DNA of 38,517 bases from NCBI GenBank assembly GCA_947453945.1, contig CANGJB010000025.1:1-38517 (forward strand), written 5' to 3'. The position numbers and the translations under genes are program-made. The notes beneath the pieces are model-generated. The model ran no database searches. It was not told the origin of the DNA and saw nothing but the letters and a program-made list of their open reading frames with translations. The DNA is from Sphingomonadaceae bacterium (lineage in GTDB: Bacteria; Pseudomonadota; Alphaproteobacteria; Sphingomonadales; Sphingomonadaceae). Positions 4,932 to 36,817 of the stretch are shown piece by piece (within the stretch, counting starts at the first letter, position 1; each line of letters begins with the position of its first letter).

Positions 4932-6176
4932 TTGCGGGTCGCATTGCTATCGTTGATGGACGCCGTTCCGGGTGAGCCACAGGGTCTTCGCGGCCTGCTG
5001 CCGATTGGCGGCCGCTCGATTCTGCGCCACCAGCTTGGCCTCTCGCTGGGGCTTGGCTGTTCACGCGTCGTCGTGCTGGCAGAAACCCTCACCAATGATC
5101 TGGTCGCGCTCCAGCACGCGGCGGAAGCCGGCGGCGCACGGTTTCATGTGATCGCCTCGGCGCGGGCGCTGGCCCAGCTGGTCGCGGCGGAGGATGAGCT
5201 GCTTGTGTTGGGCGAGGGGCTCCTCGCTATGCCCGAGGACGCGCTCCGCCTGCTGGGTGATGGGCCGGTTGTCCTCACATTACCGGTCGAGACCGGGCTC
5301 CCGCTCGGCTTTGAACGTATCGACATCAACAGTGCCGGGGCAGGTGCCATGCTGCTGCCGGGCAAGCTCATCGCCGCGCTGAGCGATCTGCCGGGCGACT
5401 GGAACCCGGGTTCGGCGCTACTGCGCATCGCTTCGCAGGCGCGCATCGTGCAGCGCGAATTGCCCGCCCTGCTGATGGATCAGGGGCGCTGGCGCCTTAT
5501 CCGCGACGAGGCCGAGGCGCACCGTGCGGAACCGGGCTGGGTTCGGCTGCATACGGCCAGCGCGCAAGTTCGCTCGCCCGGCTCGTGGATCGCTGCCGGG
5601 GTAGTGCGCTGGCTTGGCCCTGCGCTGCTGCATGCTGGAACGAGGCCCTATGTGATCGCGCTGGGCGCCTGCATCACCGCTTTGCTGGGCGCTGGCGCCG
5701 GGTGGTTTGGCTGGTGCGGGCCGGGCTTTGCGATGCTCGCGCTGGCCTGGGTGGTACATCAGGTTGCGGGCCTCCTTGCGCGGGTCGAGCGGGATTCGCT
5801 CATCGCATGGTCGGGGGGCGCGCCGCTCGACAGGCTGGCCGAATGGGTGCTCGATGGCATCTTTGTCGCGCTATGTGCCTGGCGCAGCGAGATTCCCAAG
5901 GTCGCCGGTGTGCCTTGGGGCATTGCCTGGTTTCCGCCCGTCGTGCTGTTTCTGCTGCTGCGGCTGCTACGGCGCCTCCAGCCGGACGAGGCCTGGACAT
6001 GGTGGCTGAGCGACCGGTTCATTACCGGCACTTTGCTGGCACTTGGCAGCATCCTGTTGCCGTTCGATTTCGTGCTGCGGGCCCTGGTGGTCTCGCTCAT
6101 GGTTGCGGGCCTGATCTTTGCGCGGCGCGTAGAGGGGCCCGCAGGCGGGATGCGGGCTGGCGGAAAATTGGCATGA
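4932..6176 (+). CDS. Nucleotidyltransferase-like / CDP-alcohol phosphatidyltransferase-like membrane fusion, motif eroded
   Basis: 414 residues, starting at TTG; a strong AAAGGGAGG ribosome site ends 8 bases before it, which decides the start. Residues 1-200 look like a sugar-nucleotide transferase fold (PIGGRSILRHQLGL at about 24-37, then alternating strands). Residues 236-400 carry about five hydrophobic helices. Between them, HQVAGLLAR (276-284) aligns with the D-x2-D-G-x2-A-R core of CDP-alcohol phosphatidyltransferases with both Asp replaced (His276, Ala279), and G296-x3-D300-x3-E304 with the second half, the last Asp replaced by Glu and the spacer three residues longer. Fusions of these two domains are known in inositol-phosphate phospholipid (DIPP) synthesis. 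Here the metal-binding Asp residues are mostly lost, so catalysis at the membrane domain is doubtful. Confidence 0.65.
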   Translation: MRVALLSLMDAVPGEPQGLRGLLPIGGRSILRHQLGLSLGLGCSRVVVLAETLTNDLVALQHAAEAGGARFHVIASARALAQLVAAEDELLVLGEGLLAMPEDALRLLGDGPVVLTLPVETGLPLGFERIDINSAGAGAMLLPGKLIAALSDLPGDWNPGSALLRIASQARIVQRELPALLMDQGRWRLIRDEAEAHRAEPGWVRLHTASAQVRSPGSWIAAGVVRWLGPALLHAGTRPYVIALGACITALLGAGAGWFGWCGPGFAMLALAWVVHQVAGLLARVERDSLIAWSGGAPLDRLAEWVLDGIFVALCAWRSEIPKVAGVPWGIAWFPPVVLFLLLRLLRRLQPDEAWTWWLSDRFITGTLLALGSILLPFDFVLRALVVSLMVAGLIFARRVEGPAGGMRAGGKLA

Positions 6177-6244
6177 ACAGGCGCCGGAATGGCTGTTTCC
6201 CGGCGCAAAAGGGCCTGCCTTGCCCCCGCTGGCTGCGCAACAGC

Positions 6245-6259
6245 CTAACGCCGAATTAA
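6245..6259. promoter_or_regulatory. Near-match CtrA-type box (CTAA-N7-TTAA)
   Basis: CTAA at 6245-6248, seven bases, TTAA at 6256-6259, one base off the consensus, 25 bases upstream of the 6285 start. A second TTTAA follows at about 6270. The match is imperfect and could be chance. Confidence 0.3.
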
Positions 6260-6284
6260 CCAGGCCCCTTTAAGGCTGGCGACG

Positions 6285-7238
6285 ATGGTGATTCCCGCAC
6301 CCCCGATAGCCGCAAGTGCCCAGCCGCTGGCCGATGAAATCGCCGCCGCGCGTGGCGCGGTTGCGCATGTCGTACCGATTCTGCGGCACCTCCTGCGCAG
6401 CGACGATACCTCGATCTTCAGCGACGAGATCGTGACGCGCGTGCGCGGCATGTTCCTTGATGTGGCGCGCCAGTTGGTTGTGGCGCTGGCCGAGGCCGCC
6501 GGCCATGCTGAGCCGGAAGGCTGGGCGCACGAAGCGGCTGGGGAACTGGCCCATGCGCTGGCTGAAAATCCCACATATCTTGAGCATTTCCATACTCTTG
6601 CGCTTGAATGGCAATGGACCGGGCGGCTTGAGCGCACCCGCGCGATTGATCCGGTGCTGCCGCCGCTGCTGCAGGCGCGCATGGCCGATCCCGATTCGCA
6701 GGTCTCGGCCGGCGCGATGAGCCTGCTCGCCGCACAGGCGCGTTTTTGCCAGAACCAACGGCGCATGCAGTTGCCGTTGGGGGAGCTTCCCGGCGATCTT
6801 CTCCACATCGCGCTGGTGACCATGCGCGCCCATGTCGGCATGGATGCGTCCGCCGATTCCTATGCGCTGATTGCCGAACGCACTGTGCGTGCCCAGATCG
6901 ACGAGGCGCGCGCGCGGTCGGCGCAGCTGCGCCGCATGCTCGATGCAATGGGCGATGACGTGCAAGCCGCGCTGGATGTCGATCAGGCCGGCATGGCCTT
7001 GTTCCTGACCGCGCTGGCACGCGGTTCGGGTCTCAGCCGCGAGGCTGCGACCATGGCAGCGATCGATAGCCAGCTGCCCCGCCTTATGTTGGCGCTGCGG
7101 GCCTGCGGCCTGGCCCCGGCTGCCCTCAGCGCCGCAGCACTGGCGCTCCATCCCGATGCCGAGCTGCCGTCTGGCTATGCGGACCTCTCGCCCGGTGCAG
7201 CCGCCGCGCTGCTGGCTGAGGCCGAGGTTGCCGCATGA
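6285..7238 (+). CDS. Helical protein of unknown function, coupled to pseudo-histidine kinase
   Basis: 317 residues, no signal peptide and no membrane segment. The sequence is almost wholly alpha-helical and Ala/Leu-rich, arranged as successive helix pairs (for example 140-200 and 200-300), reminiscent of HEAT-like or DUF2336-like helical repeats found in alphaproteobacterial signalling proteins. I cannot assign a family with confidence. Its stop overlaps the start of the kinase gene at 7235 (ATGA), so the two are translationally coupled and probably work together, perhaps as partner or regulator of that kinase (inference). A near-consensus CtrA box lies just upstream. Confidence 0.75.
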   Translation: MVIPAPPIAASAQPLADEIAAARGAVAHVVPILRHLLRSDDTSIFSDEIVTRVRGMFLDVARQLVVALAEAAGHAEPEGWAHEAAGELAHALAENPTYLEHFHTLALEWQWTGRLERTRAIDPVLPPLLQARMADPDSQVSAGAMSLLAAQARFCQNQRRMQLPLGELPGDLLHIALVTMRAHVGMDASADSYALIAERTVRAQIDEARARSAQLRRMLDAMGDDVQAALDVDQAGMALFLTALARGSGLSREAATMAAIDSQLPRLMLALRACGLAPAALSAAALALHPDAELPSGYADLSPGAAAALLAEAEVAA

Positions 7239-26878: not shown

Positions 26879-26908
26879 GGTCTTGATCCGGCCGGCTGCG
26901 CTGATGCG

Positions 26909-26938
26909 AAAAGGGGCGGCCCCGCAAAGGACCGCCCC
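26909..26938 (-). terminator. Rho-independent terminator for the small heat-shock gene
   Basis: On the minus strand GGGGCGG pairs with CCGCCCC (plus-strand positions 26913-26919 and 26932-26938), followed directly by TTTT. It lies 22 bases beyond the Hsp20 stop at 26961. The stem may also end pyrG read-through on the other strand. Confidence 0.75.
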
Positions 26939-26960
26939 TCGCTGGAGATGACGGGATCGG

Positions 26961-27425
26961 TTACGCGGCTGCGCTGGTGTCGCCCTCAACCACGGTGAGC
27001 GGCTGGGCGCTGCCGCCGATCAGCACCTTCTTGGGCTTCATCGCCTCAGGCACTTCGCGCAGGAGATCGATGACAAGCAGCCCATCGGCCAGATCGGCGC
27101 TTTCGACGCGGACGAAATCGGCAAGTTCGAACCGGCGCTCGAAGGCGCGGTTGGCGATGCCGACGTGGAGGAAATGTCCGTCCTGCGCTTCGGTGCGCTG
27201 ACCCTTCACGACCAGCAGGTTCTGCTGCGCGGTGATATCGAGATCATGCGGCTTGAACCCGGCGACGGCGAGTGTGATGCGGTATTCGTCTTCCCCGCGC
27301 CGTTCGATGTTGAAAGGGGGGTAGTTGTCGCCGGCACTGGCCCGGGCCTGGCGTTCGAGCAAATCGAACAGGCGGTCGAAGCCCACGGTCGAGCGGCGAT
27401 AGGGCGTGAAATCAAAACGTTCCAT
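26961..27425 (-). CDS. Small heat-shock protein, Hsp20/IbpA type
   Basis: 154 residues. The N-terminal MERFDFTPYRRSTVGFDRLFDLLE and YPPFNIERRGEDEYRITLAVAGF are typical of bacterial class A small heat-shock proteins. The alpha-crystallin domain continues to FVRVESADLADGLLVIDLLREVPE; the final conserved A-x-x-x-x-G-L-L motif is present, then a C-terminal KPKKVLIGG with the IXI-like extension. Such proteins hold unfolding proteins as ATP-independent chaperones. Its 5' leader folds over the ribosome site (see 27431-27450), and a sigma-32-like sequence lies further upstream. It has its own terminator. Confidence 0.93.
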   Translation of the reverse strand: MERFDFTPYRRSTVGFDRLFDLLERQARASAGDNYPPFNIERRGEDEYRITLAVAGFKPHDLDITAQQNLLVVKGQRTEAQDGHFLHVGIANRAFERRFELADFVRVESADLADGLLVIDLLREVPEAMKPKKVLIGGSAQPLTVVEGDTSAAA

Positions 27426-27430
27426 GTTTG

Positions 27431-27450
27431 CAATCCTCGAGATTGAGCAA
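27431..27450 (-). promoter_or_regulatory. ROSE-like RNA thermometer in the hsp20 leader
   Basis: The ribosome site GAGGA (27434-27438) lies 8 bases before the hsp20 ATG. It can be hidden in two ways: CAAUCU-CGA-GGAUUG (27431-27445), six base pairs including one G-U; or UUGCUC-AAUCUC-GAGGAU (27433-27450), whose U-U and G-G mismatches are the pattern known from ROSE elements. Leaders of this kind control rhizobial and other small heat-shock genes. A CTTGAA sequence at 27557-27562 with a poor -10 could be a sigma-32 promoter. Melting behaviour is inferred. Confidence 0.55.
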
Positions 27451-27570
27451 TCTGCATTGGGACTGGACCCGAATTGGCGCCCAGCCGTTTACTTGTGGTC
27501 ACGCCCGGCTTGCGGCGCATGACACGATGACTGATGTGTGTTAGCGATTTTGCGATTTCAAGAGGTACCC

Positions 27571-27861
27571 ATGAGCGAACCTGCCACCCCTTCCGCTGGC
27601 CCCGCCGCAACTGTCGAGATCTACACCAAGTGGGGCTGCCCTTATTGCAGCCGTGCGCTGGCGCTGCTGGGCCGCAAGGGCGCCAGCGTCACCGAGTATG
27701 ACATCACGATGGGCGGGCCCAAGCGCGCAGAGATGCTGGAACGCGCGCCCGGCGTGAGCACGGTGCCGCAGATCTTCATCAATGGCACCCATGTCGGCGG
27801 TTCTGACGATCTGGCCGCGCTGGAAGCGGCTGGCAAGCTCGACCCAATGCTGGCGGCATGA
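27571..27861 (+). CDS. grxC: Glutaredoxin 3
   Basis: 96 residues. Dithiol active site CPYC in TKWGCPYCSRAL, cis-Pro region GVSTVPQIFINGTHVGGSDDL, all typical of GrxC, which reduces disulfides with glutathione. The ATG at 27571 has AGAGG 5 bases upstream. The stop overlaps the next start (ATGA), coupling it to the nitrilase gene; together with DUF1178 this trio is a common alphaproteobacterial operon. Confidence 0.95.
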   Translation: MSEPATPSAGPAATVEIYTKWGCPYCSRALALLGRKGASVTEYDITMGGPKRAEMLERAPGVSTVPQIFINGTHVGGSDDLAALEAAGKLDPMLAA

Positions 27862-28718
27862 AGGCCGGGCGCGTGCGTATCGCGCTTTTGCAGATGACGA
27901 CGGGCATCGATCCGGCTGCAAATGCCGCCGCGATGGCCCGCGCCGCACACGAAGCGGCGGGTGAGGGGGCGGCGATGCTGTTTACCCCCGAAATGTCGGG
28001 CCTGCTCGATCGCGACAGGGCACGCGGGAGCCGTCATGTGGTGCCGGAGGATGAAAACCCGGTGCTGGCGGCAGTGCGCGAAGCAGCGGCCAAAGCTGGG
28101 ATCTGGGTCCATATCGGCAGCCTTGCGGTGACCGCCGGGGAAGGCGCGCGCTGGGCCAACCGCGCTTTCGTGATCACGCCATCGGGCGAAATCGCCGCGC
28201 GCTACGACAAGATCCACATGTTCGATGTTAATCTGGCGAGCGGCGAGACCTGGCGCGAATCCGCCGCTTATCAGCCGGGCGAAAGCGTGGTGACGGTGGA
28301 GACGCCGCTCGGCCGGCTGGGGCTGGCGATCTGCTATGATGTGCGCTTTCCCGCCTTGTTCGAGGAACTGGGCCGCAGGCAGTGCGATGCCATCGCCATT
28401 CCCGCTGCCTTCACCGTACCCACAGGCCGCGCGCACTGGAATCTGATGCAGCGCGCCCGCGCGGTCGAGGCGAGCGCCTTTGTCATCGCCGCAGCGCAAG
28501 TGGGCCGCCACGAGGACGGGCGCCAGACCTATGGGCACAGCCTGGTGATCGATCCCTGGGGCGATGTGCTGCTCGATATGGGCAATGAGGCCGGGCCTGA
28601 GGCCGGACCCCGGGGCGCGCTGGGCTATGCCGAGATCGACCTTGCCCGCATTGCCGAGGTGCGCGCGCAAGTTCCCAGCCTTGCCAACCGCCGCCCGATT
28701 CCTACATCTGGCACATGA
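27858..28718 (+). CDS. Nitrilase-superfamily amidohydrolase, NIT1-like
   Basis: 286 residues. The Glu-Lys-Cys triad is visible: Glu45 in FTPEMSGL, Lys118 in RYDKIHMFDV and Cys159 in LAICYDVRFP. The close match to the KIHLFDV / CYDxRFPxL pattern suggests the NIT1 group, which hydrolyses deaminated glutathione or similar omega-amides. Its coupling to grxC, a glutathione-dependent enzyme, agrees with a glutathione-repair role (inference). Overlaps the following gene by four bases (ATGA). Confidence 0.9.
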   Translation: MKAGRVRIALLQMTTGIDPAANAAAMARAAHEAAGEGAAMLFTPEMSGLLDRDRARGSRHVVPEDENPVLAAVREAAAKAGIWVHIGSLAVTAGEGARWANRAFVITPSGEIAARYDKIHMFDVNLASGETWRESAAYQPGESVVTVETPLGRLGLAICYDVRFPALFEELGRRQCDAIAIPAAFTVPTGRAHWNLMQRARAVEASAFVIAAAQVGRHEDGRQTYGHSLVIDPWGDVLLDMGNEAGPEAGPRGALGYAEIDLARIAEVRAQVPSLANRRPIPTSGT

Positions 28719-29200
28719 TTGTTTTCGATCTTGAATGCCGTGCTGGCGGACACCGGTTTGAAGGGTGGTTCGCCAGCTCGGAGGATTTTGCCGGCCAGCA
28801 GGCGCGCGGGCTGGTGACGTGCCCCACCTGCGGCGCGCCGGAAGTGGACAAGGCGCTTTCCGCGCCGCGACTGTCGCGCAAGGGCAACCAGCTTCCCGCC
28901 GCCATCCCCGCGCCGGCGCCCTCAGCCGAGCAGCCGATGCAGGCGGCCGCCGCGCCCCTCCCGCCCGAGGCGGCGGCGATGCTGAAAGCGGTGGCGGCAG
29001 TTCAGGCCGAAATGCTCAAGACATCGACCTGGGTTGGCGAAAGCTTTGCCGACGATGCGCGGGCCATGCACTATGGCGAGAAGGACGCGGCAATGATCCA
29101 TGGCCGCGCAAGCCCCAGGGAAGTGCAGAGCCTGATCGAGGAAGGCGTGCCCGTGGCGCCGGTGCTCGTGCCTGTGGTGCCCCCCGGCGAGGTCAACTGA
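28715..29200 (+). CDS. DUF1178 family protein
   Basis: 161 residues. N-terminal IVFDLECRAGGHRFEGWFAS and a Cys pair in CPTCGAPEVDKALSAP, then a low-complexity Ala/Pro linker and a helical C-terminal part with EVQSLIEEGVPVAPV. This is the layout of DUF1178, whose function is unknown; the Cys residues could bind zinc. It is the last gene of the grxC-nitrilase operon. Confidence 0.88.
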   Translation: MIVFDLECRAGGHRFEGWFASSEDFAGQQARGLVTCPTCGAPEVDKALSAPRLSRKGNQLPAAIPAPAPSAEQPMQAAAAPLPPEAAAMLKAVAAVQAEMLKTSTWVGESFADDARAMHYGEKDAAMIHGRASPREVQSLIEEGVPVAPVLVPVVPPGEVN

Positions 29201-29279
29201 TCGCCCGACGGCAGATTGCGGGGCATTGGCAGGGCGCGATTGCCAGACAGCGGCCTGCCGCTTAAAGGGCAGAGCGGTG

Positions 29280-29356
29280 GCGCCCGTAGCTCAGCCGGAT
29301 AGAGCACCAGATTCCTAATCTGGGGGCCGTGGGTTCGAATCCCGCCGGGCGCACCA
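29280..29356 (+). tRNA. tRNA-Arg (CCT)
   Basis: A full cloverleaf: acceptor GCGCCCG pairs with CGGGCGC, discriminator A and encoded CCA at 29354-29356. D arm GCTC...GAGC, anticodon stem CCAGA/TCTGG around loop TTCCTAA (anticodon CCT), T loop TTCGAAT between GTGGG and CCCGC. Reads rare AGG codons. Confidence 0.96.
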
Positions 29357-29369
29357 CCCTTGCCGGCGA

Positions 29370-30245
29370 TCACACGCCGATGCGGTCCCTTAGATACGTG
29401 AGATACTGGCGCATCGCGTCCATCGCCTCGTCGTTGATGGCAAGGAGATCGCGGCGCCGGTCGAGCGGATCGGGCCAGCGGCGGATCAGGCCCATATCGA
29501 CCAGGCTGCGGATCTGGCGCAGCGCCGTGCTCATCGGCACGCCGGCTGCCTGGCAGACGCTGGAGACCGGCACGGTTTTCTGTTCGAGCCGGGCCGAAGT
29601 CAGATCGAGGAGAATGTCCCACATCGGATCGGAGAAAAGCGCCGCATCCAGAAACTGCCCGCGCTGCTCGCGCATCCGCACCAGCTTGCGGGTGATCTTG
29701 AGCAATTCGGCATCATCAATCGGGGGGAGCGATGCCGCGCTGGCCAAGGGGCCGGCCTCGCTCATGGTGCCTTGCAGGCTCGCGCTCAGCGCGGCGATCG
29801 ATCGTTCGCCGCACAGACGCAGCCACTTGCGCATCGCGCGGCGCAGCGCCGCTGCAAGATCCTCGCGCGAGACCGGCTTGGTGAGAAAATCCGCCGCCTC
29901 GTTGCGCATGGCTGCGACTGCGACGTCGATGCTGCCGAAACCTGTGATCACCAGAGTTACCAGCGGGCGCTGCGAGGCGAAGCGGGAGGCCAGTTCATCA
30001 AGCAGCGAAAGCCCGGTCATGCCAGGCATCTGCACATCGGTCACGACAATGCCGATCGTATCGTCTTCCGCGATCATGCGCAGCGCCGTGGCCGCATCAA
30101 GCGCATAGTTGCAAAGGTAACCCAGGAGATGCGCAGCCTCGACAACCTCTTCAGCTGTCGCCAGATCGTCATCGACAACGAGAATGCGGCATTGCGCCCT
30201 ATCTCGCTCTGAGGCCCCTCGGTCCGTAGTCCCTTTCGCGTTCAT
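29370..30245 (-). CDS. Response regulator with MarR-like winged-helix output
   Basis: 291 residues from the ATG at 30245 (MNAKGTTDRGA); an upstream ATG at 30335 is also open but would run through the divergent promoter region and the 27-bp palindrome. The receiver is complete: acidic cluster Asp25-27, phospho-acceptor Asp70 in VVTDVQMPGMTG, Thr101 and Lys123 in FLTKPVSRED. After a helical linker, residues 200-290 form a MarR/winged-helix domain (VPVSSVCQAAGVPMSTALRQIRSLVDMGLIRRW, with the wing in [10 protein letters not shown]). It is divergent from the H-NOX operon and is a candidate for the protein that binds the shared palindrome. The gene ends 14 bases after tRNA-Arg. Confidence 0.88.
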   Translation of the reverse strand: MNAKGTTDRGASERDRAQCRILVVDDDLATAEEVVEAAHLLGYLCNYALDAATALRMIAEDDTIGIVVTDVQMPGMTGLSLLDELASRFASQRPLVTLVITGFGSIDVAVAAMRNEAADFLTKPVSREDLAAALRRAMRKWLRLCGERSIAALSASLQGTMSEAGPLASAASLPPIDDAELLKITRKLVRMREQRGQFLDAALFSDPMWDILLDLTSARLEQKTVPVSSVCQAAGVPMSTALRQIRSLVDMGLIRRWPDPLDRRRDLLAINDEAMDAMRQYLTYLRDRIGV

Positions 30246-30346
30246 GATCCGGTATGTTTCTCGCTCTTCATGGGAAATTACATCCGCTTTGGACCATGTT
30301 TCCCCCAAAGCCGCGCATGTCGGATGCAATCGCATCGATCAACGCC

Positions 30347-30373
30347 TGATTGGTGCCATAGTGGCACCGATCA
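30347..30373. promoter_or_regulatory. 27-bp near-perfect palindrome, putative operator in the H-NOX divergent region
   Basis: Arms TGAT-T-GGTGCCA (30347-30358) and TGGCACC-G-ATCA (30362-30373) flank TAG; only one of twelve arm positions breaks the symmetry. It lies between the starts of the regulator (30245) and the HisKA mini-gene (30490). Two related copies occur at 36508-36553. The binding protein is unknown; the winged-helix regulator and the LuxR-type regulator are candidates. Confidence 0.65.
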
Positions 30374-30489: not shown

Positions 30490-30735
30490 ATGGCAGTGGA
30501 ATGCGACACAAACGTTCAGGAGTACCTGCACGAACTGCGCCAGCCACTCAATGTCATCGGGCTCGCGACCGGAAATCTGCGCTCGGCACTGTGTCCCGGG
30601 CTGGGCAAGGAGCAGGCCGATTATCTCATCGCCAAGCTGGACAGGATCGACGAGCAGGTCGCGCGCATCGCATCGCTGGCCGATCAGCTGACGGGGGATG
30701 GGGGCCCCTTGTTTTTCGCCGCGCCTGCAGTCTGA
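30490..30735 (+). CDS. Stand-alone HisKA-like (DHp) mini-protein
   Basis: 81 residues. YLHELRQPLNVIGLATGNL (His14) reads as an H-box helix of a HisKA dimerisation domain, and KEQADYLIAKLDRIDEQVARIASLADQL as its second helix; the protein then ends with no ATPase domain. It could be a phosphotransfer or dimerising partner for the hybrid kinase two genes downstream, whose ATP site is eroded, or a recipient of phosphate from the second hybrid kinase (inference). The ATG at 30490 has GAGGA 5-9 bases upstream. First gene of the H-NOX operon, 16 bases before the H-NOX gene. Confidence 0.75.
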   Translation: MAVECDTNVQEYLHELRQPLNVIGLATGNLRSALCPGLGKEQADYLIAKLDRIDEQVARIASLADQLTGDGGPLFFAAPAV

Positions 30736-30751
30736 CGCCCGGCGCTGATCC

Positions 30752-31294
30752 ATGTATGGAATGGCTCATCGCGCGCTGCGCCAGATGATGGTTGATCGCC
30801 TCGGCCCCGCTGTCTGGGCGAGGATCGAGCGTGAGACGAGCACCGGCCCTGCCGATCTCATCAGCCTGTGCGTCTATGATGATTCCAAGACCCTCGCCCT
30901 CATCTCTGCCTCGGCCACGCACCTTGGCCTGCCGGTGGACGAGGCGCTGCGCGACTTCGGCCGCTACTGGGTGCGCTATGCCGAACTGAGCTCGTTCGGG
31001 CCGATCATGGATTTCACTGGGCAGGATCTGGTCACTTTCATCAACAATCTTGACCGGATGCACCGCTCGGTCGTGCTCGCCATGCCCGATGCAAGGGTTC
31101 CCTCATTCACTTTGCTGGATGAGACCGATGGCAGGCTGCTGGTGCGCTATCGCTCAGACCGGACCGGGCTCGAGACATTCGTGATCGGCCTGCTGGAGGG
31201 CCTGATGGACCGGCTTGGTGAGGCAGGGGAGGTGGGCGTGGCCTCCCGCGAAGGCAATGCGATCGACTTCGCGATCCGGCTCGACAGGAACTGA
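30752..31294 (+). CDS. H-NOX heme nitric-oxide/oxygen-binding sensor
   Basis: 180 residues. Begins MYGMAHRALRQMM, as H-NOX proteins do; the proximal heme ligand His104 lies in NNLDRMHRSV and the heme-propionate motif Y-x-S-x-R is intact (Tyr133, Ser135, Arg137). FGRYWVRY (69-76) is the other family landmark. Bacterial H-NOX proteins bind NO (and in some cases O2) and control an adjacent kinase or cyclase. Distal-pocket Tyr typical of O2 binders cannot be judged here. It is followed 6 bases later by the hybrid kinase. A further reading of the operon is that gas binding adjusts that kinase and the HisKA mini-protein. Confidence 0.92.
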   Translation: MYGMAHRALRQMMVDRLGPAVWARIERETSTGPADLISLCVYDDSKTLALISASATHLGLPVDEALRDFGRYWVRYAELSSFGPIMDFTGQDLVTFINNLDRMHRSVVLAMPDARVPSFTLLDETDGRLLVRYRSDRTGLETFVIGLLEGLMDRLGEAGEVGVASREGNAIDFAIRLDRN

Positions 31295-31300
31295 GCGGTC

Positions 31301-32902
31301 ATGAAGGCTGCCGTCACCCTCCGTGAATCGCAGCTCGGCGCGCTCTTCAGAGCCTTCATCGAGGTCGACCACAACCTCGTGGTGCGCACCGCCGGTCCGT
31401 TCTTTGCCAGCCGGCAGACCGAGGTCGTCCCCGGGGTGCAATTGGCCGAACTCTTCTCGCTGCGCCACGACCGCGAGGACAACAAAACGTACTCGCCGAA
31501 ACGTGTCATTGGCGAGATGGCGGATACCCCGGAGCGACTGGAGCTGTTCTGCAAGAGCAAGAATATCCGGCTGGCCGGGATCGTGTTTTCCATTGAGGGG
31601 GGCTTTCTGCTCGCGCTCAATATCGTGCCGGAGGACTTCATCATCGAAGACCAGGGCCTCACGATTTCGGACTTCTCGCAGATCGATTCTTCGGTTCCGG
31701 CGCTTACGCTCATCGGGATGCAGCGCGCCTTGCTGGCCGAGGCGCGGCAGGCCGCGATCGATCTTGCCAAGGCACAGGCGGATGCGGTCGAACTACTCGA
31801 TCGGACCGAGCGCATCGGGCGTTATATCGTCCACGACCTTACCAACTACCTTTCGATCATCCGGCTCAATGTTGCCAATCTTGCGCGCTCTGGCGGCAGC
31901 GCCGAGACCAGCCGGAGCGCGATCGAGGCAGCGACGCGCCACGTGAGCGATCTGGTGATTTCGCTCGAGCGGCTGACCGGGCACCGCGATGTGGAAGTGC
32001 AGCCCATCGCGGTCGATCATACCATCCGGGCGAACCTGGCATTCCTTGAGGCATCGCTGCCGCCCGATTTCACGCTCAATTTCATCGGCAGCGTGCCGCA
32101 GGCCGCAGTCCGGGTCGGGCGGACCGAGTTGATCATCATGCTCACCAACGTGATCGTCGATGCGCGCGGCGCCATGGCAGATGGCGGAGCCATCACCATC
32201 ACCACCTTCCGCAGCGCGCACGGACCGGCGGTCCGGCTGGGCGAGCGGGGCGAATGGGTTGTCATCAAGATCATTCACGACGGCCCGGGGATCGACCCGG
32301 CAGCCGTTCCGAACTTGCACGATCCGGAGCCGGTGATCTGGCCGGACAGCCCGGACTTTGTCTTGCGAGCGGTGCAGACCTGGGCCCGCGCGGCCGGGGG
32401 AGATGCGCGGGTCACCTCGATGCCCGGCGCGGGAACCGACATCTGCATTCATTTGCCGATCTGCAACGATGCCGAAGTGCCCGATCATGCCGCTGCATCG
32501 ATCGTGGGCCTTGCGCCGCCGCGCACTGGCGCGATGGCGCGGGTGCTTGTGGTGGAGGACGAGATTCACGCGCTTGACGCCATTGTGGAGATCCTGCGCA
32601 TGGAAGGCTATGCCGCGACGCCGGCCTCCAATGCCGCACAGGCGCTTGAGGCGCTGGCCGCCGCCGAGTTCGACATCCTGCTGACGGATGTCATCATGCC
32701 CGAGACGAGCGGCGTCGATCTTGCGCACGCGGTGGAGGCGCGCCATCCCCGCATCGGGATTGTGCTGATGAGTGGCTACTTTCCCGATGAAAGCCTGCTG
32801 CAGCCGCACTGGCGCATGTTGCGCAAGCCGCTCGACCTCAGCCTGCTTATGCAGACGCTGGCGGCAGCCCATGCCGCGCAGGCGCCGGTTCGCAGCGCTT
32901 AG
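31301..32902 (+). CDS. HNOBA-type hybrid sensor kinase with eroded ATP site and C-terminal receiver
   Basis: 533 residues, no TM helix. Residues 8-130 resemble the HNOBA (H-NOX-associated) domain, with VDHNLVVRTAGPFFASR and LAELFSLRH. A coiled-coil helix (143-175) leads into an H box with His178 (IVHDLTNYLSI). The ATPase domain is irregular: the N box reads N283-x3-D287 (Asp where the Mg-binding Asn should be), DGPG is present at 327-330, and the GTGLGL lid is absent, replaced by LHDPEPVIWPDSPDFV. The C-terminal receiver (412-525) has Glu419-Asp420, Asp463 in LTDVIMPET, and Lys509, so it can accept phosphate. It likely transmits the H-NOX signal; whether it autophosphorylates is doubtful. Confidence 0.88.
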   Translation: MKAAVTLRESQLGALFRAFIEVDHNLVVRTAGPFFASRQTEVVPGVQLAELFSLRHDREDNKTYSPKRVIGEMADTPERLELFCKSKNIRLAGIVFSIEGGFLLALNIVPEDFIIEDQGLTISDFSQIDSSVPALTLIGMQRALLAEARQAAIDLAKAQADAVELLDRTERIGRYIVHDLTNYLSIIRLNVANLARSGGSAETSRSAIEAATRHVSDLVISLERLTGHRDVEVQPIAVDHTIRANLAFLEASLPPDFTLNFIGSVPQAAVRVGRTELIIMLTNVIVDARGAMADGGAITITTFRSAHGPAVRLGERGEWVVIKIIHDGPGIDPAAVPNLHDPEPVIWPDSPDFVLRAVQTWARAAGGDARVTSMPGAGTDICIHLPICNDAEVPDHAAASIVGLAPPRTGAMARVLVVEDEIHALDAIVEILRMEGYAATPASNAAQALEALAAAEFDILLTDVIMPETSGVDLAHAVEARHPRIGIVLMSGYFPDESLLQPHWRMLRKPLDLSLLMQTLAAAHAAQAPVRSA

Positions 32903-32911
32903 GCCCTGACC

Positions 32912-35149
32912 CTAGGCCGCGGGCCGATGGGCCTGCACGGATGCCAGCTGGCCAATCAGGGTCTCTACTGAAAACGGCTTTTCCAGCAGCGGCCAGCGCA
33001 GCCGCGAATTTGCGCGGCGCGCGGCATTGCCCGACATCAGGATGATCCGCATGTCCGGGTTGTCTGCGGCGGCCTGCCGGGCCAGCGCGGTGCCATCCTC
33101 GCCGTTGCCGAGAAGGAGATCGCAGATCAGCACATCGAAGCGGCTGTGGCTGAGGGTTTCCAGCGCTTCGCGTGCTGACGTGCATCCGGTTGCGCCATGG
33201 CCGGCGATACTCAGGGTCTCTACCATACCGCTCAGCAAATCAGGCTCGTTATCCACCACGAGCACCTGCAGCGCAGCGGGCCTCGGTGCGGGAAGGGCAG
33301 CGGCAGGGCGGTGCGTGGCATCCGGTGCGGCAGCGGTCGATGCAGGCAGCACGATCTGGACAGTCGTGCCTTGTGCACCGCTGCTGAGGACACGCGCGGT
33401 GCCGCCATGGTGTGAGGCAAACCCGAGCACGGCTGCCAGCCCTAGGCCCGTCCCCCGTGCCGGCCCCTTGGTCGAGAAGAACGGCTCGAAGGCCTGCTCG
33501 CGCACGTCTTCGGACATGCCGGTGCCGGTATCAGAAACCTCGATGATTACCAGCGTCTTGGCTTTCAAGTCAGCCGCCAGATCGGCGCGGGCAGGGCAGC
33601 TCTCATCCGCTTCGCTGCGCCAGGTGCGGATTGTGAGGACACCGTGATCGCCCATCGCATCGCGCGCATTGATGGCGAGATTGACCAGCGCGTTGTTGAA
33701 CCCGGCCGGATCGATTTCGACCGGCAAGGCTTCGTCCGAAAGCACGGCCTGCACATCGATGCCCGGCCCGACTGCTGCGCGGATCAGCGCGATCAGGCGG
33801 GAGGTGAGGCCGTTGATTTCGGCAAGCTGGGGGATGCCACGCGGATGGCGGGCAATGCCCAGCAGCGAACGGGTGATATCCACCCCGCGTAGCGCTGCCT
33901 GCGCGATCAGGGCGAACCGGTCATGCACCGCCGCCTCGCTTTCGGCCTCGCGTCCGCCGATCTCTGCGTGGGTCGCAATGATGCCAAGGATATTGTTGAA
34001 ATCATGCGATAGCTCGCCGGAGATGTGGCCTATCAATTCCATCTTGCGGCTGCTCACAAGCTCTGCCTTGGCCTCGATCATCACCAATCCCTGCGCAAGG
34101 CTGATGGACATTTCCTCGAGGATGCGGATCTCGTCATCGGCAAAAGCGCCCAGCTCATCGGAATAGAGCGTGAGCGAGCCGAAGGCCTCTCCATCGCGAA
34201 GCAGCGGAAACGCGGCAATGGCCGCAAACCCCTGGCTGAGCGCGGCCTCGCGCCAAGGCGCCATCTCGGGATCGTTTGCGACCGACGGCACCACGCAGAC
34301 CCGGCCTTCGCGCACCGCCCGGGCTGTGGGGCCAAGGCCGAGCACGGGATCGTCCGGGCGGATATCGAGCGCGCCGATATAGTCCGCATGGCCCGATGCG
34401 TGGGCCGTCACGCGGATCCGGGCAATCGGCCCATGTTCGCGCAGGCCGATCCAGGCTGCGGCATAGCCGCCCGCCTCGGTCAGGCTTTGGCAAACCAAGT
34501 TGTGCAGTTCGGACCGCGACTGGGCGCGCGAGATTGCGGCGTTCACCAGCGCAAGCGCGCGCAAGGCGCGGCGATTGCGCACGATGCTATCGTGATTGCG
34601 CAGATCCTCGGTCACATCCGTGGCAAAGCCGACCCAGTATCCGGAGCGCCCACCCTTGAGATGGTGCGGATAGAAACGAGTGCGCACTGTGCGTTCCTCA
34701 TCTTCTGCCGTCATCATCCGGAACTGGGTGGTAAACACCTCGAGCTGCGCCTGACCGGCGCGTATCTCGCGTCGGACGCGCTGGCGATCATCGGGATGAA
34801 CGATTTCGAGGCGCGATTCCGCCGCCTGCATCGGGGTCAGTTTCTCGTGTCCCCAGATCCGCTCGTAGGCGGAGGTGACAAACAAGGTCTGGCCTGAAGG
34901 GTATTCCTCGATCCAGATGACCTGGTCGATCGAATTGGCCGCGATGCGCGCCAGATCTAGATAGCCCTGAAGCTGTGCGCGCTCGGCAAGGAGGCGGCCC
35001 ACAGACCAGAGGAGGGCGGCAACCACCACGAGCCCGATGGTCGCTGCAGGCCGAGCACCAGAACTCTGCAGTTCGAACCCGGCCAGTACCGCAGCAAAGG
35101 CAGCAGCAGCTGTCGGCCAAATCTGCGCTGTCACGCGCTCCTGCGCCAT
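32912..35149 (-). CDS. Complete hybrid histidine kinase (TM-PAS-GAF-HisKA-HATPase-REC)
   Basis: 745 residues. Two hydrophobic segments in the first 52 residues, a PAS domain (about 68-185, IWIEEYPSGQTLFVTSAYERIWG with a PAC end), a GAF-like domain (about 195-360), phospho-acceptor His382 in ELSHDFNNILGI, ATP-binding N box NLAINARDAM (490-499), G1 DTGTGM (540-545), FFSTK, GTGLGL (566-571), and a C-terminal receiver with Asp677 in LICDLLLG and Lys724. All phosphorelay residues are intact, in contrast to the kinase at 31301. It converges on that gene with only 9 bases between stops. A perfect CtrA-type box and a large stem-loop lie in its upstream gap. Confidence 0.93.
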   Translation of the reverse strand: MAQERVTAQIWPTAAAAFAAVLAGFELQSSGARPAATIGLVVVAALLWSVGRLLAERAQLQGYLDLARIAANSIDQVIWIEEYPSGQTLFVTSAYERIWGHEKLTPMQAAESRLEIVHPDDRQRVRREIRAGQAQLEVFTTQFRMMTAEDEERTVRTRFYPHHLKGGRSGYWVGFATDVTEDLRNHDSIVRNRRALRALALVNAAISRAQSRSELHNLVCQSLTEAGGYAAAWIGLREHGPIARIRVTAHASGHADYIGALDIRPDDPVLGLGPTARAVREGRVCVVPSVANDPEMAPWREAALSQGFAAIAAFPLLRDGEAFGSLTLYSDELGAFADDEIRILEEMSISLAQGLVMIEAKAELVSSRKMELIGHISGELSHDFNNILGIIATHAEIGGREAESEAAVHDRFALIAQAALRGVDITRSLLGIARHPRGIPQLAEINGLTSRLIALIRAAVGPGIDVQAVLSDEALPVEIDPAGFNNALVNLAINARDAMGDHGVLTIRTWRSEADESCPARADLAADLKAKTLVIIEVSDTGTGMSEDVREQAFEPFFSTKGPARGTGLGLAAVLGFASHHGGTARVLSSGAQGTTVQIVLPASTAAAPDATHRPAAALPAPRPAALQVLVVDNEPDLLSGMVETLSIAGHGATGCTSAREALETLSHSRFDVLICDLLLGNGEDGTALARQAAADNPDMRIILMSGNAARRANSRLRWPLLEKPFSVETLIGQLASVQAHRPAA

Positions 35150-36740: not shown

Positions 36741-36817
36741 TGGCGCGCCCTGCAGGATTCGAACCTGCGGCCACCGGCTTAGAAGGCCGGTGCTCTATCC
36801 AGCTGAGCTAAGGGCGC
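36741..36817 (-). tRNA. tRNA-Arg (TCT)
   Basis: Minus-strand cloverleaf: acceptor GCGCCCT pairs with AGGGCGC, discriminator G and encoded CCA (36741-36743). Anticodon stem CCGGC/GCCGG around CTTCTAA gives anticodon TCT; T loop TTCGAAT. Reads AGA codons. Confidence 0.96.

What the first reader, a model, noticed from the sequence alone, without database searches (positions are those of the whole stretch)
30490..32902. H-NOX operon built around a stand-alone HisKA mini-protein
A 81-residue protein that is essentially one HisKA dimerisation/phospho-acceptor domain (His14) precedes an intact H-NOX sensor and an HNOBA-type hybrid kinase. Typical H-NOX loci pair the sensor with a full kinase or cyclase; a free DHp domain in the same operon would allow a split kinase or relay in which acceptor and ATP domain are on different proteins.
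Basis: partly seen in the sequence, partly recalled or inferred. Interest (0 to 1): 0.75.

Follow-up and report, generated by a model that had tools for sequence, protein, structure and literature searches.

The report
Free-standing phospho-acceptor in nitric-oxide-sensor operon
In Novosphingobium bacteria an operon for a predicted nitric-oxide sensor carries an 81-residue protein that is little more than a predicted phospho-accepting domain, next to a kinase-like protein that has lost its ATP-binding motifs, so the signal likely comes from a second kinase encoded next door and likely passes through the small protein to a gene regulator.

Summary
Window 30490-30735 encodes an 81-residue HisKA/DHp protein (Pfam E 7.7e-6; 26.3 bits, cut-off 26.9), followed on the same strand by H-NOX and a receiver-bearing kinase. 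In the window's genus, 16 of 16 genomes with this H-NOX type have the mini (195 searched); in the family sample, 8 of 9 loci. The acceptor His is kept at 26 of 27 compiled mini loci and in 177 of 178 distinct homologue clusters.

Seven Novosphingobium loci, one clade, share this; 18 of 18 other assessable loci keep the motifs. The pseudokinase keeps its DHp active site and receiver under purifying selection. The same 7 of 195 genus genomes, and no others at E<=1e-150, carry a second hybrid kinase with intact motifs, convergent to the operon, whose own receiver acid pair is Asp-Asn (7 of 7).

Best reading: the mini is a minimal DHp-type phosphotransferase between receiver domains (CckA-ChpT-CtrA logic without ChpT's second domain). 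Six genus genomes with an H-NOX-less mini have it beside receiver genes. Phosphotransfer is untested, and the pseudokinase swap is a single event. New variant of a known kind.

The parts
29370..30335 (-). Response regulator: REC domain plus MarR-like winged helix; divergent from the mini gene (conserved start probably near 30245)
   Evidence: Pfam Response_reg 67.4 bits, MarR 20.6 bits under its cut-off; orthologue in the stretch held at 24 of 27 compiled loci
30352..30368 (.). Palindrome GGTGCCA-N3-TGGCACC in the divergent promoter region, putative operator
   Evidence: 0 mismatches in the window; aligned in 7 of 7 pseudokinase-clade loci, with one arm base changed in L105
30490..30735 (+). 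Mini-DHp, 81 aa, one HisKA domain
   Evidence: HisKA E 7.7e-6; AlphaFold2 helical hairpin 2-37/40-69, mean pLDDT 84; best Foldseek hits are histidine-kinase DHp regions, none at E<=0.001
30529..30531 (+). Codon of His14, predicted phospho-acceptor (box HELRQPLN)
   Evidence: CAC; His at 26 of 27 compiled loci and in 177 of 178 homologue clusters
30752..31294 (+). H-NOX haem sensor, 180 aa
   Evidence: PF07700 E 3.7e-35; proximal His and YxSxR present
31301..32902 (+). HNOBA-like / DHp / degenerate CA / REC protein, a predicted pseudo-histidine kinase
   Evidence: HATPase_c and Response_reg hits; motif table; the seven form one group with 100/100 support
31832..31834 (+). Codon of His178 in the pseudokinase DHp (HDLTN), retained
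   Evidence: His178, Asp179, Asn182 invariant in 23 of 23 aligned kinases; numbering checked
32006..32476 (+). Degenerate CA domain: Asp287 at the N-box Asn, His326 at the G1 Asp, G2 GLGL lost, lid changed
   Evidence: dN/dS 0.30 against 0.14 for the CA of HK2
32537..32860 (+). Receiver domain of the pseudokinase, acid pair, acceptor Asp463, Lys509 and LMSGY intact
   Evidence: dN/dS 0.13
32912..35149 (-). HK2: second hybrid kinase, PAS-GAF-HisKA-HATPase-REC, catalytic motifs intact, receiver acid pair Asp-Asn
   Evidence: Pfam (its HisKA hit is weak, E 0.098); motifs in 7 of 7; E<=1e-150 orthologue in 7 of 195 genus genomes

Best explanation
The 81-residue protein is a free-standing DHp domain that likely works as a minimal histidine phosphotransferase, predicted to take phosphate on His14 from the receiver domain of a neighbouring hybrid kinase and to hand it to the receiver of the divergent winged-helix response regulator, in a relay predicted to be gated by nitric oxide through H-NOX. 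Shown here: the domain, its conservation, the gene order, and the neighbours' motifs. At the compiled loci outside the window's clade the neighbouring HNOBA-like hybrid kinase has complete ATP motifs wherever they could be read (18 of 18) and could feed the relay itself. In the clade of the window that protein has lost its ATP motifs but keeps its DHp active site (H178, D179, N182) and an intact receiver, and a second hybrid kinase with intact catalytic motifs (HK2) is encoded convergently beside it. There HK2 would supply the phosphate, while the H-NOX-bound pseudokinase would act as receiver, phosphatase or allosteric gate (inferred). Phosphorylation of His14, the direction of flow and the NO response are all untested.
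For: HisKA match and DHp-like predicted fold. Mini in 16 of 16 genus genomes that carry this H-NOX type and at 8 of 9 such loci in the family sample. His at 26 of 27 compiled loci and in 177 of 178 distinct clusters, acid at His+1 in 173 of 178; 58 of 58 in the window-type set. The kinases bear a C-terminal REC with LMSG[Y/F] in 25 of 25 assessable rows, similar to the FxSGY motif that PMC9981736 finds in CckA-type intermediary receivers (sections 11 and 18 read). The kinase profile's nearest solved structure is CckA (5idj). Six of 195 genus genomes have a stand-alone mini without this H-NOX type, and all 6 lie beside receiver genes. Pseudokinase: 7 of 7 HK2-bearing loci have lost N, G1 and G2 against 0 of 18 assessable others; 22 of 22 clusters at >=67% identity, the window's own included, have lost N and G2; its DHp (dN/dS 0.08) and REC (0.13) stay constrained. 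HK2 in the same 7 of 195 and no others at E<=1e-150, catalytic motifs intact in 7 of 7, Asn at the second position of its receiver acid pair in 7 of 7. The published H-NOX relay HqsK-LuxU is His-Asp-His (PMC6759604 passages).
Against: No phosphotransfer was measured. The acceptor is Gln at one locus (L101) and in one cluster (P0039); His+1 is Ala at L033 and L152 and in 5 of 178 clusters. Of the 6 H-NOX-less minis, one has Asp for His (G478), one Ser at His+1 (G453) and one is frameshifted (G547). No null was computed for 'beside receiver genes', and two-component genes are common. ChpT contacts its receiver partly through its CA-like domain (PMC9981736 passage), which the mini lacks. PMC9981736 itself calls the significance of the FxSGY-type motif unresolved. 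The pseudokinase-HK2 association is one clade, hence one evolutionary event. Five of the 22 pseudokinase clusters keep the first G1 Asp, 3 of them the full D-x-G-x-G, so loss of ATP binding is inferred from motifs. One related H-NOX locus (L051) has no mini. The response regulator was not found in the stretch held at 3 of 27 loci.
Confidence: 0.55

Rival explanations
1. Split kinase: the mini's His14 is phosphorylated directly in trans by the CA domain of HK2 (or, in relatives, of the HNOBA-like kinase).
For: Acceptor and ATP domains lie on different proteins in this clade; split HisKA/HATPase arrangements are described (PMC3591291 passages).
Against: 18 of 18 assessable relatives without HK2 have a kinase with complete motifs and its own His beside the mini, so nothing needs to be split there; H-NOX-less minis lie next to receivers.
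Confidence: 0.15
2. Receiver phosphatase or sink: the mini is a DHp that binds and dephosphorylates the response regulator or kinase receiver; phosphorylation of His14 is secondary.
For: Two His-to-Gln forms keep the rest of the sequence (L101, P0039); Gln at His+4 is invariant in 178 of 178 clusters.
Against: His is kept in 177 of 178; the phosphatase motif quoted in PMC3591291, HE/DxxN/T, is not met because His+4 is Gln. The pseudokinase, by contrast, does keep HDxxN.
Confidence: 0.15
3. Dimerisation partner or inhibitor: the mini pairs with the DHp of a full kinase and controls it sterically.
For: It is a predicted DHp hairpin; Foldseek lists the RetS-GacS DHp complex 7n0e among its weak hits.
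Against: In one local pairwise alignment, similarity to the window kinase's DHp is confined to 18 residues around the H-box; such a role gives no reason for near-invariant His and acid.
Confidence: 0.1
4. Relic: the mini is a leftover of a decayed full kinase with no function.
For: L051 carries a full-length HK with the box HELNQPLN near H-NOX; one genus copy is frameshifted (L222).
Against: dN/dS 0.19 in the six-locus set, 84 of 120 listed homologues are exactly 78 aa, 253 homologues, and present in 16 of 16 genus genomes with this H-NOX type.
Confidence: 0.05

Closest known systems
CckA-ChpT-CtrA phosphorelay with pseudokinase DivL (Caulobacter and relatives)
   Same: Hybrid kinase with C-terminal receiver, HK-derived dimeric DHp phosphotransferase, DNA-binding response regulator, and a pseudo-HK that controls the active kinase; the window kinase profile is nearest CckA in the PDB.
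   Different: ChpT has a degenerate CA domain and the mini has none; the pseudokinase here lies in an H-NOX operon and keeps its His and a receiver (for ChpT and DivL: PMC9430884, PMC9981736, PMC3433190 passages).
H-NOX/HqsK-LuxU-LuxO of Vibrio
   Same: H-NOX with a hybrid kinase and a separate phosphotransfer protein, His-Asp-His flow to LuxU and on to LuxO (PMC6759604 passages).
   Different: LuxU is an Hpt protein shared with quorum sensing, with a distant locus number; here the transfer candidate is a DHp in the operon, and in the window the kinase is motif-degenerate.
PhyT of Sphingomonas melonis
   Same: Phosphotransferase between receivers in a sphingomonad, which its authors suspect evolved from a histidine kinase (PMC5898713 abstract and discussion).
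   Different: PhyT is membrane-bound and thought to have a degenerate catalytic domain; the mini is DHp only; a different pathway.
Split kinases CheA3/CheA4 and HisKA proteins lacking HATPase
   Same: Acceptor and ATP functions on separate proteins; 1556 of 42417 HisKA proteins lacked HATPase in that paper's census (PMC3591291 passages).
   Different: No direct cross-phosphorylation is shown here, and relatives outside the window's clade keep a kinase with complete motifs beside the mini.

Membership tests
HisKA / DHp domain | Profile match with conserved His and adjacent acid | tested here: met
   E 7.7e-6, 26.3 bits, 0.6 bit under the cut-off; 27 of 29 homologues match at E<=1; His-Glu in the window
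HisKA / DHp domain | Two-helix antiparallel hairpin | tested here: met
   Predicted model H2-37/H40-69, pLDDT 84; top Foldseek hits are HK DHp regions, but best E 0.11 and none at E<=0.001
ChpT/Spo0B-type HK-derived phosphotransferase | C-terminal degenerate CA-like domain | tested here: not met
   The protein ends after the hairpin; HisKA is the only significant domain
ChpT/Spo0B-type HK-derived phosphotransferase | Phosphotransfer between receivers via His, no autophosphorylation | not testable with these tools
   Needs biochemistry
Canonical Hpt domain | Hpt profile / monomeric four-helix bundle | tested here: not met
   No Hpt hit up to E 10 nor listed for 29 homologues up to E 1
H-NOX | Proximal haem His and Y-x-S-x-R | tested here: met
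   H104, Y133, S135, R137 invariant in 6 of 6; PF07700
H-NOX-associated hybrid histidine kinase | Same operon as H-NOX, DHp and receiver | tested here: met
H-NOX-associated hybrid histidine kinase | ATP-binding motifs (N, G1, G2) | tested here: not met
   Lost in the window and 6 relatives, so filed as a predicted pseudokinase
Split histidine kinase | CA of one protein phosphorylates acceptor on another | not testable with these tools
   Only the motif distribution is shown
Pseudo-histidine kinase controlling an active kinase (DivL-like) | Degenerate HK that binds and regulates an active HK | tested here: inconclusive
   Degenerate, and paired in the genome with HK2; binding untested

The most novel reading that the evidence does not exclude
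One histidine kinase's jobs have been dealt out over three proteins: HK2 keeps the ATP chemistry while its receiver is compromised, the H-NOX-bound pseudokinase keeps sensing and an intact receiver, and the 81-residue DHp is the smallest possible phosphotransferase joining them to the regulator. Comparison of intact-kinase and pseudokinase loci shows catalysis being handed from one kinase to a newly recruited neighbour while the mini-DHp stays constant.
Probability: 0.3. Interest if true: 0.8.

Novelty: new variant of a known kind. Interest (0 to 1): 0.62.

Why it matters
If right, a bare DHp hairpin with no CA-like domain suffices as a phosphotransferase in nature, and a nitric-oxide pathway offers a natural before-and-after experiment: sister loci with a complete kinase and loci where it became a pseudokinase beside a recruited kinase, with the same small protein, sensor and regulator. 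That makes it directly testable how phosphorelays re-route and what pseudo-histidine kinases are kept for.

Tried and rejected
Split kinase as the general role: rejected as first choice because 18 of 18 assessable relatives without HK2 keep complete kinase motifs.

Regulon of the response regulator: a scan of 7 genomes for the palindrome with up to 3 mismatches found exact or one-mismatch sites only at this locus. A recurring 3-mismatch site in 5 of 7 genomes was read in four of them and lies just downstream of a ruvB-like gene (name recalled), so it does not look like a promoter. A half-site scan of 12 genomes hit 11; 17 loci were read and most hits look intragenic, i.e. chance. One lead remained, upstream of a gene that looks CsgG-like (my recall of the family, no search run).

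HNOBA assignment: only weak. Whole-kinase model: mean pLDDT 74, pTM 0.39, so used only to say that the CA still resembles histidine-kinase CA domains.

Origin of the mini: L051 suggests truncation of a full kinase, but the DHp is too short for a tree; not pursued.

Limits of the counts. The 27 loci were compiled because they have the mini beside this H-NOX type, so '27 of 27' gene order is by selection; the unselected figures are 16 of 16 (genus) and 8 of 9 (family sample). The named-genome scan used patterns from six H-NOX sequences of mini loci. Two of its 18 loci (L108, L109, not sphingomonads) have no mini and were dropped. One split H-NOX gene (G211) was not fetched. Frames were taken stop to stop; L092's regulator frame was mis-picked, so regulator dN/dS rests on 10 of 15 pairs and is not used. 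L146 was found later and is not in the dN/dS set. L104 and L152 have truncated kinases and were left out of kinase counts. HK2 was sought genome-wide only in the genus, with 5 candidates scored per genome; elsewhere only in the flank held, which at L106 is 535 bases. The tree holds 4 of 7 HK2 rows and warns of long branches.
Full report
What is there. The window encodes, on the + strand, an 81-residue protein (30490-30735), an H-NOX protein (30752-31294) and a 533-residue DHp-CA-REC protein (31301-32902), spaced by 16 and 6 bases; a REC-winged-helix response regulator (29370-30335) is divergent and a second hybrid kinase, HK2 (32912-35149), is convergent. The small protein matches Pfam HisKA at E 7.7e-6 and 26.3 bits, 0.6 bit under the curated cut-off; 27 of 29 aligned homologues match at E<=1. 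Its predicted structure is a helical hairpin with mean pLDDT 84; the best solved-structure matches are DHp regions of FixL-type chimeras, CpxA and GacS, but none reaches E<=0.001 (best 0.11), as can be expected of a short hairpin. H-NOX has its haem-ligating His and Y-x-S-x-R in 6 of 6 aligned sequences; that these bind haem and NO is family knowledge, not tested here.

Where it occurs. In a sample of 397 genomes of the family, 59 have an H-NOX of any type. Sixty regions around the H-NOX places were fetched and compared with the window's proteins. Nine loci, the window's included, carry the window's H-NOX type (tblastn identity 43% or more), and 8 of the 9 have the mini directly upstream; L051 does not, and has a full-length kinase with a similar box nearby. 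A scan of named genomes gave 18 loci; 16, all titled as sphingomonads, have the mini: Novosphingobium sediminis, N. sp. NDB2Meth1 and MAGs of Novosphingobium and other sphingomonads; the other two (a planctomycete MAG and Flavobacterium stagni) do not. Within the window's genus, 16 of 195 genomes have this H-NOX type (E<=1e-60) and all 16 have the mini. The genus is taken as Novosphingobium because same-genus contigs match named Novosphingobium records by length. In a sample of 385 genomes of the class, the matches to the mini profile in the 24 other genomes lie in frames of 488 aa or more, presumably full kinases (E<=1e-6).

Is His14 kept? At 26 of 27 compiled loci; L101 has Gln. In the protein collection, 178 distinct clusters were readable from two searches (120 of 253 hits listed, and 58 of 58): His 177, Gln 1; next residue Glu or Asp 173, Ala 5; His+4 Gln 178. 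In the window-type set His is 58 of 58. So the acceptor is almost but not absolutely constant.

The kinase beside it is degenerate. At all 18 other assessable loci these motifs are present (L104 and L152 are truncated and left out). Twenty-two clusters at 67% identity or more, the window's own included, show the same loss of N and G2; in five of them the first G1 Asp survives, three with the full D-x-G-x-G. The seven form one group with 100/100 support and a long stem (29-row tree, which warns of long branches), so this is taken as one event. It is not simple decay: over six loci and 15 pairs, mean dN/dS is 0.30 for the degenerate CA, 0.08 for its DHp, 0.13 for its receiver, 0.19 for the mini and 0.12 for H-NOX, against 0.14 for HK2's CA. 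His178, Asp179, Asn182 and the receiver's Asp420, Asp463 and Lys509 are invariant in 23 of 23 aligned kinases.

A second kinase appears in the same genomes. HK2 (E<=1e-150) is found in 7 of 195 genus genomes, the same seven as the pseudokinase (five candidates were scored per genome; G523 has a second copy at a contig end with the tail of another pseudokinase). Outside the genus it was sought only in the flanks held, 3.1 to 3.4 kb after the kinase except at L106 (535 bases) and the truncated L104. HK2 keeps His, N-box, G1, lid Phe-box and GTGLGL in 7 of 7 loci, while its receiver has Asp-Asn in place of the usual acidic pair and SGN in place of SGY in 7 of 7; its acceptor Asp and Lys are kept. 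The pseudokinase's receiver is intact. That the second acid is the main Mg ligand is recalled from CheY.

How it probably works. Hybrid kinases with a C-terminal receiver generally need a phosphotransferase to reach a regulator. PMC9981736 (abstract, passages, sections 11 and 18) describes this for CckA-ChpT-CtrA and reports an FxSGY motif in such intermediary receivers, while calling its significance unresolved and noting a hybrid-kinase receiver (ShkA) without it. The kinases here have LMSG[Y/F] in 25 of 25 assessable rows and are nearest CckA in the PDB. The mini is the obvious candidate for that step. Further support comes from 6 of 195 genus genomes that have a stand-alone mini without this H-NOX type: all six lie beside receiver genes (two single-domain receivers at L175 and L222; one at L219 and L220; a regulator of the same type at L221; the start of such a regulator and a kinase at L223). 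No null was computed for that neighbourhood. Three of the six keep His and acid (L175, L219, L223); L220 has Ser after His, L221 has Asp for His, and L222 is frameshifted. In the window's clade, ATP chemistry would come from HK2. Published parallels: HqsK to LuxU in Vibrio (PMC6759604 passages), PhyT in Sphingomonas (PMC5898713 abstract and discussion), DivL as a pseudokinase over CckA (PMC9430884 passages), ChpT structure (PMC3433190 passages) and split kinases (PMC3591291 abstract and passages).

Novelty. Nine searches of the open-access library were made. Among the papers listed, none has a title or abstract start describing this arrangement. The three most direct were H-NOX with sphingomonad or Novosphingobium terms (12 of 742 listed), pseudokinase with H-NOX (0 papers), and stand-alone HisKA or DHp phrases (1 paper, on cyanobacteria, not read). 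Subscription papers are not covered. Bare HisKA proteins (PMC3591291) and H-NOX-hybrid kinase relays are known; the in-operon mini-DHp and the pseudokinase-plus-HK2 derivative appear to be new variants.

Noticed in passing
window 30352-30368: Perfect palindrome GGTGCCA-N3-TGGCACC between regulator and mini, aligned in 7 of 7 pseudokinase-clade loci (one arm base changed in L105); a related half-site TGGCANCGAT lies upstream of the mini at five further loci (L098, L099, L107, L150, L151). Putative operator for autoregulation.
   Followed up: partly
G000:C29:22647-23123 (L001, L091): The same genome has a second, different-type H-NOX gene, near a peroxiredoxin-like gene (name recalled) and without a mini.
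   Followed up: no
L175 and L222, around 5000-7100: Stand-alone mini homologues beside two single-domain receivers and a TonB-receptor-like gene (name recalled) in genomes without this H-NOX type; the L222 copy is frameshifted.
   Followed up: partly
L223 (G558:C72): Start of a regulator, mini and an HNOBA-like kinase with intact motifs, with no H-NOX between mini and kinase; the contig is only 3934 bases.
   Followed up: partly
L033, L040, L041, L044 upstream of the mini: A second gene resembles only the C-terminal winged-helix part of the response regulator.
   Followed up: no
L100 about 3720: The H-NOX frame of this MAG appears interrupted by a stop although tblastn runs through.
   Followed up: no
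L196 about 4502 (G000:C24:19501): Two TGGCAGYGAT half-sites in tandem upstream of a gene that looks CsgG-like (family recalled, not searched); a possible biofilm-related target.
   Followed up: partly
window 26898-29361 and 36741-36817: The block sits between a nitrilase-like/DUF1178-like pair (names recalled) with tRNA-Arg(CCT) on one side and tRNA-Arg(TCT) on the other; the left flank aligns at 80-83% over 1.6-2.5 kb in 5 of 6 pseudokinase-clade relatives, and over only 64 bases in L094.
   Followed up: partly
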